From assembly GCA_031286045.1 (NCBI GenBank), contig JAITVA010000085.1, positions 1-35,040 of the forward strand: a DNA stretch of 35,040 bases. The letters are read 5' to 3'. The notes under the pieces were generated by a model. The model saw nothing but the letters and a program-made list of their open reading frames with translations. It was not told the origin of the DNA and made no database searches. Source of the DNA: Propionibacteriaceae bacterium. Its GTDB lineage: Bacteria > Actinomycetota > Actinomycetes > Propionibacteriales > Propionibacteriaceae. Below are positions 18,447-20,270 of the stretch, piece after piece (the first letter of the stretch is position 1; every line of letters starts with the position of its first letter). The translations under genes were made by a program, and so were the position numbers.

Positions 18447-18519
18447 GGCCCCGTAGCTCAGGGGATAGAGCGAAGGTTTCCTAAACCTTGCGTCGTAGGT
18501 TCGAATCCTATCGGGGCCG
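18447..18519 (+). tRNA. tRNA-Arg (anticodon CCT)
   Basis: GGCCCCG acceptor pairs with CGGGGCC; D-arm GCTCAGGGGATAGAGC; anticodon arm AAGGT-TTCCTAA-ACCTT; T-arm GTAGGTTCGAATCCTAT. Confidence 0.95.
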
Positions 18520-18547
18520 CCTTTGCACGATGAGATGGGGCCGGGAG

Positions 18548-18713: not shown

Positions 18714-18860
18714 TCAATGATCACCATGATTATTGAGTTGTGCTTCACGGTTGGGGTGACCGTAAGCGAACCGGGTGGAAGCCGAGATGACTTCGCTGAC
18801 CCAGGCATGTGTGACTGATTTGGCGGGGATTAAGCGGCCTTCTTGGTCTGTCGTCCACAT
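18714..18860 (-). CDS. Possible 48-aa small protein with a MerR-type spaced promoter
   Basis: MWTTDQEGRLIPAKSVTHAWVSEVISASTRFAYGHPNREAQLNNHGDH. Upstream minus strand: TTGACC-N19-TGGAAT, ending about 10 bp before ATG. Confidence 0.3.
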   Translation of the reverse strand: MWTTDQEGRLIPAKSVTHAWVSEVISASTRFAYGHPNREAQLNNHGDH

Positions 18861-18926
18861 ATGACTATTCCAAGGTCTGCCCTTGCGTGAAGGTCAAGTG
18901 CCAGCTGAGCGGCCTTCTTTGACAGT

Positions 18927-18963
18927 GATGGGCGGACGCCCCCGAAGGAGTCGTCCGCCCATC
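18927..18963 (-). terminator. Strong hairpin with UUCG tetraloop downstream of the 21-codon ORF
   Basis: Minus strand GATGGGCGGACG-A-CTCC-TTCG-GGGG-CGTCCGCCCATC; perfect 12-bp outer stem. Confidence 0.75.
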
Positions 18964-19005
18964 GTGGTGGTTGGGATTGCTGAGTCTCAACCGTGGGTGC
19001 TCACA

Positions 19006-19071
19006 TCAGCACCACCAACCATTCGCTTGAGCAGCGAAGACCGTGGCGTCGGCAACTGTCTCGATTGTCAT
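19006..19071 (-). CDS. Candidate short peptide gene (21 aa)
   Basis: MTIETVADATVFAAQANGWWC*; preceded by AAAGGGGGGAAGAGAC; followed by the UUCG hairpin at 18927-18963. Confidence 0.45.
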   Translation of the reverse strand: MTIETVADATVFAAQANGWWC

Positions 19072-19233
19072 GTCTCTTCCCCCCTTTACATGATTGAGTT
19101 GACTCCCCGTGGAGTGGCTCTCCAAGGTGATCAACAGTCAAGTGCATGCGGTAGCGTCAATGTCAAGTGGAAATGACCATCTCGGCCGTGACATTGCTCT
19201 CAGGTCGAACCGGCGCTCTGACGACGGGCGGTC

Positions 19234-20001
19234 TCAGATAGCTAAACGCAAGCGCAGGATCCGCATGACTGAGTCGACCACATGGGCCTGGTTGGGGTTG
19301 AGGACATCGGAGTTGAGGGAAGTGTAGGCCTCCTGCACAACGCTGGAAGGGAAGTGTTGATCCAGTCCGGAATACACCACCTCAAGTGCGGCCACGTACT
19401 CGTCGATCAAGGCGTCCAGCTCAGCCTCGGCCGTGGCCTCAACGACCTTCTCGAAACGGGTGTCGAGTTCGCGTAGCGCCACGAACTCGGGAGCGTCGGG
19501 GTTGCCGACACGTCTCTGGTTGAGAGACCGGAATCGGGCGCGGTCGGTGTCGTCGCCGAGAGCCTCCACCAGGTCATTGTGCATGGTGGCCAGTGTCTGC
19601 GCCTGAGTCTCCGGGTAGGTCCTGCGCAACTGATCGACCACCACCGCGAAGTCCGGCGAGATGTCTGGCGGGCAGCCAGTGGCCTGGAGTTCTTTGACTG
19701 CCTCCAGGCGGGCCGTGGTCTCAAGGATTTGGTTCTCCAGGGCGGCCGCCAAGTGCTTCAGCGCCTCGACTGAGATCTCTGAGTTCGAGTCGTCCAGGAT
19801 GTCCTTGGCTTGTTTGAGGCTGAAGCCCAAGGAGGTCAGACGCTTGATGCGCAGAAGTTCGACCACATGATAACCGGTGTATGTCCGGTAGTTGCCATGT
19901 GTTCGGTCTGCCGAGGACAGCAAACCAATCTCTTCGTAGTGCCGAAGCGTGCGTGGAGTCAACTGGGTCATATCGGCGACCTGTTTGATAGTGAAGGGCA
20001 T
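19234..20001 (-). CDS. MerR-family transcriptional regulator
   Basis: MPFTIKQVADMTQLTPRTLRHYEEIGLL...YRTYTGYHVVELLRIKRLTSLGFSLKQAKDIL; RBS AAAGAGGTGG before ATG 20001. Confidence 0.92.
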   Translation of the reverse strand: MPFTIKQVADMTQLTPRTLRHYEEIGLLSSADRTHGNYRTYTGYHVVELLRIKRLTSLGFSLKQAKDILDDSNSEISVEALKHLAAALENQILETTARLEAVKELQATGCPPDISPDFAVVVDQLRRTYPETQAQTLATMHNDLVEALGDDTDRARFRSLNQRRVGNPDAPEFVALRELDTRFEKVVEATAEAELDALIDEYVAALEVVYSGLDQHFPSSVVQEAYTSLNSDVLNPNQAHVVDSVMRILRLRLAI

Positions 20002-20270
20002 CAGCCACCTCTTTCCATCGTGATTGTCGGGCAACCGGTGAGGTGATGGGAGCGACGACATATTATCGGTCATCGCCTCCATGACACCCATTTTAGGCCT
20101 GAGATTGTTGTTAGAGAGGCATCCATAAGAAAATGCAAAGATTTCTGGGCAAATTCCTCATGACATCACTGCCGCGACCGGCCTGATCGTCCATGCCGGC
20201 GGCCCTTGTGTGTTCGTGACCATCGGGTGTCAGTCCTCGACTTGAGGGCCTTGGTGTGCCGACAGCCGAC

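What the first reader, a model, noticed from the sequence alone, without database searches (positions are those of the whole stretch)
18927..19071. Unannotated 21-codon peptide gene ending NGWWC with strong RBS and UUCG hairpin, downstream of a MerR gene
Seen directly: the minus strand encodes MTIETVADATVFAAQANGWWC* after AAAGGGGGGAAGAGAC, then a 12-bp-stem hairpin capped by a UUCG loop. The ORF lies 162 bp past the MerR stop, on the same strand. Possible roles: a secreted or modified signalling peptide (an aromatic-Cys tail is unusual), or a Trp/Cys leader peptide with attenuator. No modifying enzyme or trp/cys gene is visible in the window, so function is open.
Basis: partly seen in the sequence, partly recalled or inferred. 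Interest (0 to 1): 0.62.

Follow-up and report, generated by a model that had tools for sequence, protein, structure and literature searches.

The report
MerR-controlled tryptophan-tailed short peptide gene
The 21-codon reading frame is very probably a real, overlooked gene: relatives of the neighbouring MerR regulator sit beside similarly short peptides with tryptophan-rich or hydrophobic tails, behind the same type of promoter, and some of these systems also carry the protease of a known class of modified peptides (daptides).

Summary
In detail: MTIETVADATVFAAQANGWWC* (minus strand, 19071-19006), strong ribosome site, strong UUCG hairpin, 162 bp after a MerR gene. It is very probably a gene. 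The MerR has a rare all-helical C-terminal domain. In Propionibacteriaceae, genes with that domain sit next to short peptide genes with aromatic or hydrophobic tails (FPWNWWPII, CWWWVCCR, IAWFLALLLLL, GFYLGL, GWYWIIKI). A MerR-type promoter (TTGAC, 19-bp spacer, TGACGctACGTCA-like dyad) precedes the window's peptide; with a site after the hairpin it is one of only two matches in the 3.04-Mb genome. In relatives the same operator precedes peptide, MerR, ABC-transporter and RRE-M50 protease genes. Four relatives have a daptide-type leader box and a daptide-type intramembrane protease; a Bifidobacteriaceae daptide cluster carries the same operator. The window, G009 and genus g15 form a reduced subtype with neither leader box nor adjacent protease. 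Most likely it is the structural gene of an autoregulated peptide product (antimicrobial and/or inducer). The Trp/Cys attenuator reading is not supported. Activity, export and modification are unproven. New variant of a known kind.

The parts
19234..20001 (-). MerR-family regulator gene (255 aa from ATG 20001; the ORF extends to a possible start at 20091): N-terminal MerR DNA-binding domain and a rare all-helical C-terminal domain
   Evidence: Pfam MerR_1 1.5e-20; C-domain profile; AlphaFold models
19136..19166 (-). MerR-type promoter/operator TTGACA-TTGACGCTACCGCATGCAC-TTGACT (19-bp spacer) upstream of the peptide gene
   Evidence: Best of 70,020 window positions with a matrix built from other genomes; only match to the strict pattern in the whole genome
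19074..19087 (-). Shine-Dalgarno region AAAGGGGGGAAGAG
   Evidence: read directly
19006..19071 (-). Peptide gene MTIETVADATVFAAQANGWWC (stop included)
   Evidence: N-terminal similarity to the G017 peptide, 0.0006 of shuffles as good
18927..18963 (-). GC-rich UUCG hairpin, probable transcript end without U-run
   Evidence: strong hairpins also follow the peptide genes of G006, G013, G017 and G220
18867..18897 (-). Second, weaker MerR-type site TTGACC-TTCACGCAAGGGCAGACCT-TGGAAT just after the hairpin; in G013 the second site lies before the protease gene
   Evidence: the reversed control pattern also gave one hit in the genome
18714..18860 (-). Tentative 48-aa ORF starting about 7 nt after the -10 of the second site (leaderless gene or remnant); no similarity found to the M50 protease
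   Evidence: uncertain

Best explanation
The ORF is the structural gene of a small MerR-controlled peptide system. The adjacent MerR binds the 19-bp-spacer promoter at 19166-19136 and switches on a short transcript that ends at the UUCG hairpin. It encodes a 21-aa precursor whose C-terminal aromatic tail (about NGWWC) is the active part. By analogy with G013, where the same operator precedes peptide, MerR, ABC-transporter and leader-cleaving protease genes, the product is most likely an autoregulated antimicrobial and/or inducer peptide related to daptide-type RiPP systems, whose presence the MerR C-terminal domain senses directly or indirectly. The window holds a reduced version with no protease found and without the leader box that goes with the protease. 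Shown here: gene family, pairing with MerR, shared promoter motif, operator before transporter and protease genes in relatives. Inferred: MerR binding, autoinduction, release of the tail, antimicrobial or signal activity.
For: Short peptide genes with aromatic or hydrophobic tails lie beside relatives of this MerR in G013, G006, G017, G009 and G220 and, found afterwards with the MerR C-domain alone, in three g15 genomes. 7 of 10 family loci against 1 of 20 other MerR loci have a Trp-tailed SD-preceded ORF within 300 bp downstream. The g15 peptide occurs only in the 3 of 40 genomes that also have MerR and peptide together. A MerR-type promoter matrix from other genomes picks the site upstream of the window ORF first, unique in the genome. 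The same operator precedes ABC-transporter genes (G013, G075) and M50 genes (G013, L074) not used to build the matrix, except the G013 M50 site in the first matrix. Protease: daptide_HExxH 137-225 bits in the relatives. Operator-linked ABC ATPases score best with the lantibiotic-protection model, below its cutoff.
Against: The window peptide has no direct homolog and lacks the daptide leader box. No protease was found in its genome, though the assembly is 92.7% complete. g15 peptides show pN/pS 0.6-1.1, not strong purifying selection. Two of five g15 genomes with this MerR lack the peptide. No expression, binding or activity data.
Confidence: 0.55

Rival explanations
1. Pure peptide pheromone: the processed Trp-rich tail leaves the cell, returns and binds the MerR C-terminal domain, which then activates the peptide promoter (quorum sensing, working like ComR-ComS with its double-Trp pheromone), without antimicrobial activity.
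For: Subtype B modules consist of MerR plus peptide with no processing enzyme beside them (window, G009, g15). Operator upstream of the peptide gene. Tails differ between species while W-W is kept.
Against: No recognisable export signal; C-domain has no significant structural match to peptide-binding folds; in G013 and G075 the operator also precedes ABC transporters resembling lantibiotic protection, which favours an antimicrobial.
Confidence: 0.25
2. Trp/Cys leader peptide with transcription attenuator: ribosome stalling at the Trp-Trp-Cys codons decides whether the hairpin forms.
For: Two Trp codons and one Cys codon just before the stop, hairpin 42 nt downstream of the stop.
Against: No trp or cys gene downstream; next on this strand is an ORF of unknown function across an oppositely oriented tRNA. 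Predicted pairing of the Trp codons does not overlap the terminator stem. Relatives keep the peptide but not Trp/Cys codons.
Confidence: 0.03
3. Small regulatory or membrane-acting protein that is never released, e.g. a ligand or inhibitor of the MerR inside the cell.
For: Short, no charged residue in the tail, no export signal, gene next to the regulator.
Against: Protease, leader box and transporter genes under the same operator in relatives point to a processed and exported product.
Confidence: 0.12
4. Chance ORF in an intergenic region; the promoter serves an RNA or another gene.
For: SD plus short ORF is common by chance (55% of random regions); no direct homolog.
Against: Trp-tailed ORFs at this place, on this strand, with SD and promoter recur in independent lineages.
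Confidence: 0.05

Closest known systems
Daptides (RiPPs with an amino-modified C-terminus; NCBIfam NF041808, NF041821-NF041824; PMC10036551)
   Same: Subtype A relatives share the leader box (cf. ELExMEAP), the RRE-fused intramembrane M50 protease and linked ABC transporters; a Bifidobacteriaceae daptide cluster (L074) carries the same MerR operator.
   Different: Propionibacteriaceae loci have no decarboxylase, aminotransferase or methyltransferase beside them and no C-terminal Thr; M50 scores are below the curated cutoff; the window peptide has neither leader box nor protease. No MerR is mentioned in the two daptide papers searched.
ComR-ComS / Rgg-type double-tryptophan pheromone systems of streptococci
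   Same: Regulator beside a short ORF whose C-terminus carries a W-W motif; regulator-controlled peptide promoter; a membrane metalloprotease (Eep there, M50 here in subtype A) may process the peptide (PMC9765709, and own knowledge).
   Different: Regulator is MerR with its own helical domain, not an RRNPPA protein; actinobacteria; no evidence yet of signalling.
MerR regulators with large effector domains (TipAL, BmrR)
   Same: MerR DNA-binding domain and 19-bp-spacer promoter; C-terminal sensor domain; the TipAL DNA-binding domain is among the structure matches.
   Different: C-terminal domain has no significant sequence or structure match in the PDB and pairs with a gene-encoded peptide.
Epipeptide systems (YydF/LiaK-type maturation protease, NCBIfam NF058609)
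   Same: The M50 proteases of the relatives match the LiaK model weakly (E 2e-4 to 1e-10).
   Different: Much weaker than the daptide model; no radical-SAM epimerase seen in the ORFs read beside the loci; none in the window.

Membership tests
Daptide precursor (window peptide) | Leader motif ELExMEAP-like | tested here: not met
   No box in MTIETVADATVFAAQANGWWC; present in G006, G013, G017, G220 and L074 peptides
Daptide precursor (window peptide) | Invariant C-terminal Thr | tested here: not met
   C-terminus is Cys
Daptide precursor (window peptide) | RRE-M50 protease in the genome | tested here: not met
   No match in G000; assembly 92.7% complete
Daptide precursor (window peptide) | Amino-modified C-terminus in the product | not testable with these tools
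   needs mass spectrometry
Daptide cluster (relatives G006, G013, G017, G220) | Decarboxylase/DH, aminotransferase and methyltransferase genes | tested here: inconclusive
   None recognised in the ORFs read beside the G013, G006 and G017 loci; whole genomes not searched for them
Daptide cluster (relatives G006, G013, G017, G220) | RRE-fused intramembrane M50 protease | tested here: inconclusive
   NF041824 137-225 bits over nearly full length, cutoff 300
MerR family (19234-20001) | MerR DNA-binding domain | tested here: met
   PF13411 1.5e-20; structure matches to MtaN, TipAL and BmrR
MerR family (19234-20001) | Regulated promoter with 19-20-bp spacer and dyad | tested here: inconclusive
   Motif present with 19-bp spacer; its dyad is imperfect in the window and binding is untested
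MerR-long/short-peptide module (defined here) | MerR C-domain, short SD-preceded ORF with aromatic or hydrophobic tail beside it, MerR-type promoter | tested here: met
ComR-ComS-like pheromone system | Peptide induces its own regulator | not testable with these tools
   needs a reporter assay with synthetic peptide
ComR-ComS-like pheromone system | RRNPPA (TPR) receptor | tested here: not met
   Regulator is MerR; C-domain model without significant PDB match
Trp/Cys attenuator leader | Alternative pairing exclusive with the terminator and a biosynthetic gene downstream | tested here: not met

The most novel reading that the evidence does not exclude
A new actinobacterial cell-cell signalling class: a MerR regulator with a previously undescribed helical domain directly senses the short Trp-rich peptide encoded beside it and autoinduces it, and the same regulatory module was recruited by daptide-type clusters.
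Probability: 0.25. Interest if true: 0.85.

Novelty: new variant of a known kind. Interest (0 to 1): 0.6.

Why it matters
It turns an overlooked 21-codon ORF into a member of a peptide family with a defined regulator, operator and, in relatives, a processing protease and transporter. It links MerR regulation to daptide-type leaders, shows protease-only and protease-free versions that searches keyed on modifying enzymes would miss, and makes a question testable: whether MerR proteins can be receptors for gene-encoded peptides.

Tried and rejected
Peptide and DNA searches in relatives: no direct homolog. MerR scan of genome contigs: none. Rfam: only the tRNA. Pfam, PHROGs, NCBIfam on the window peptide: none. 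Plasmid collection: only partial, generic MerR matches. Mobile island at tRNA-Arg: no second copy of the tRNA 3' end in the window. Class-wide MerR C-domain search: only weak hits. Streptomyces and Planctomycete M50 loci: distant, no MerR of this kind in them. Other weak peptide hits in g15: chance frames. M50 remnant next to the window gene: no convincing hit. An earlier idea that CCTTGGAG-AGCCA-CTCCACGG (about 19110) was the operator was dropped: spacing does not fit and the matrix prefers 19166. The ABC transporter at the start of the window was considered as part of the system and rejected: no operator there.

Full report
OBSERVATION. The minus strand reads AAAGGGGGGAAGAGAC-ATG and then MTIETVADATVFAAQANGWWC*, 19071-19006, 162 bp after the MerR stop. 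The hairpin 18963-18927 has a 12-bp outer stem, a bulge, 4 more pairs and a UUCG loop, z -3.3, without a U-run. An SD-preceded short ORF alone is common by chance (55% of random regions); with an aromatic/Trp tail it is 4.8%. The ORF by itself is therefore suggestive only.

NO DIRECT HOMOLOG. The peptide and its DNA have no convincing match in the 18 congeners or further relatives.

THE MerR LEADS TO A FAMILY. The window's MerR gave its best genus matches in G006, G017, G013, G009 and G010, several as pairs of MerR genes. Beside the MerR a short SD-preceded ORF was found in G013 (MTETTTIVDPTTDADRTIDLTITDYDAVDAPCWWWVCCR), G017 (MSTETDLDLTITEFDSTEAPIAWFLALLLLL) and G006 (MSTDSKLDLTITEFDSNEAPVVWFLALLLLL), and, about 600 bp upstream of the MerR, in G009 (MDLTIPPATEPSPNPGISLFGWYWIIKI). 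None was recognised for G010. In G013, G017 and G006 the peptide gene is followed by an M50 membrane metalloprotease. A profile of these proteases found G220, another genus: MerR C-terminus, MSNEETTNDEVTISTDEQSDFVITEYDAVDAPGFYLGL, protease.

INDEPENDENT TEST. A profile of the MerR C-terminal domain alone (DNA-binding part excluded) was run on 199 genomes of the family. Besides the known ones it found five genomes of genus g15 and weakly G204. Three g15 genomes have a 24-aa ORF 61-165 bp behind the MerR with an identical upstream sequence GAGAAAGGAAGATGCACA: MLTTTITTNIPIDTPFPWSWWPIA, MFTIIVTTNAPTDTSFPWNWWNWG, MLTITITTGTTEDVSFPWNWWPII. The other two (G090, G099) keep the MerR or a remnant without a recognisable peptide. 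Identity between the three loci is about 0.7 upstream and in the CDS but 0.25-0.43 just after the stop; pN/pS is 0.6-1.1, so length and tail are kept while the rest varies. Among 40 congeners that peptide occurs only in these three genomes (weaker hits are chance frames). SD-preceded Trp-tailed ORFs within 300 bp downstream occur at 7 of 10 family loci against 1 of 20 other MerR loci (Fisher 0.0004). That family set includes the loci where the pattern was first noticed, and two entries start from the short MerR; the g15 trio was found afterwards. Outside the family only weak matches exist.

THE PROMOTER. Upstream of the peptide genes lies a MerR-type promoter with a 19-bp spacer: G095 TTGACC TTGACGCTACGTCAGCATG TTGACT; G079 TTGACT TTGACGCTACGTCAGCATC TTGAAT; window TTGACA TTGACGCTACCGCATGCAC TTGACT (19166-19136); G009 TTGATT CTCACGTTACGTCAAGTTG TTAACT. 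A matrix built without the window ranks the window site first of 70,020 positions and a site just after the hairpin (18897-18867) second. In the 3.04-Mb genome the strict pattern occurs only at 19166 and a looser one only at these two sites, with one hit for the reversed control. Sites not used in the second matrix appear before ABC-transporter genes in G013 and G075, before the M50 gene of G013, before the divergent MerR in G079 and G095, before the long MerR in G017 and G006, before an MFS-MerR pair in G204, and before the second M50 gene of a Bifidobacteriaceae daptide cluster, L074. The putative regulon is thus MerR, peptide, protease and transporter.

WHAT KIND OF PEPTIDE. The protease matches NCBIfam daptide_HExxH over nearly its full length but below the cutoff (G013 214.8, G220 224.6, G017 137.5 against 300). 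L074 (MAG JAISBQ010000346.1) is a daptide cluster with aminotransferase above cutoff, dehydrogenase, RRE protein, two proteases and four Thr-ending precursors, the first MRAHLDLTVAELEPLSAAFGPILLVPWLVLILT. [quoted passage not shown] A box D[LF][TGV][IV].[ED][LFY][DE]..[EDS]A[PA] is present in every peptide that has the protease beside it and in none of the five without (window, G009, three g15). The box was written from the protease-linked set, so the informative part is its absence in the others. Two subtypes follow: A, leader box plus RRE-M50 (tails VVWFLALLLLL, IAWFLALLLLL, CWWWVCCR, GFYLGL); B, 21-28 aa, no box, no protease beside it, Trp-rich tail. The window is subtype B.

MECHANISM. Shown: family, pairing, common promoter motif, operator before transporter and protease genes in relatives. 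Inferred: MerR activates the peptide promoter; the transcript ends at the hairpin; the C-terminal tail is the product; the MerR C-domain senses the product or its effect. ABC ATPases behind the operator in G013 and G075 score best or near best with the lantibiotic-protection model TIGR03740, below its cutoff, which favours an antimicrobial with autoinduction. The reduced MerR-plus-peptide modules leave a pure pheromone possible. The AlphaFold model of the C-domain is seven helices (pLDDT 78, pTM 0.69) with no significant PDB match, so its ligand is open. The full-length model matches only MerR DNA-binding domains.

REJECTED. Attenuation: no target gene, no competing pairing with the terminator, Trp/Cys codons not kept in relatives. 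Mobile island at the tRNA: no repeat of the tRNA 3' end in the window.

LIMITS. The window is one whole contig of a fragmented genome (92.7% complete, 310 contigs), so missing genes may lie in gaps. Genus g15 is unnamed here. No expression or biochemical data were available. That no prior work links MerR to such peptides rests on a few searches of an open-access library.

Noticed in passing
window 18867-18897 (-) and 18714-18860 (-): Second MerR-type site right after the hairpin; its -10 ends about 7 nt before the ATG of a 48-aa ORF, so a leaderless gene, or a promoter left behind after loss of a downstream gene, is possible.
   Followed up: partly
window 18833-18851 and 18908-18926: A 19-nt imperfect direct repeat (ACNGNCNAAGAAGGCCGCT on the minus strand) flanks the second site.
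   Followed up: no
window 18447-18521 (+): tRNA-Arg(CCT) borders the module; no repeat of its 3' end elsewhere in the window.
   Followed up: yes
L074 1-7960: Bifidobacteriaceae MAG contig with a daptide cluster of four precursors and two RRE-M50 proteases; the MerR operator precedes the second protease gene.
   Followed up: partly
L122 7496-13501 (G079): The g15 MerR/peptide module of G079 adjoins carrier-protein, acyltransferase and ketosynthase-like genes; neighbours differ in each g15 genome, as if the module moves.
   Followed up: no
L121 8458-9446 (-) (G075): The operator-linked ABC ATPase gene of G075 is split over two frames, probably a frameshift.
   Followed up: no
L126 2123-4250 (G204): MFS transporter plus a short-type MerR behind the same operator, without a recognisable peptide; the MFS resembles the fragment at the start of L074 by eye.
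   Followed up: no
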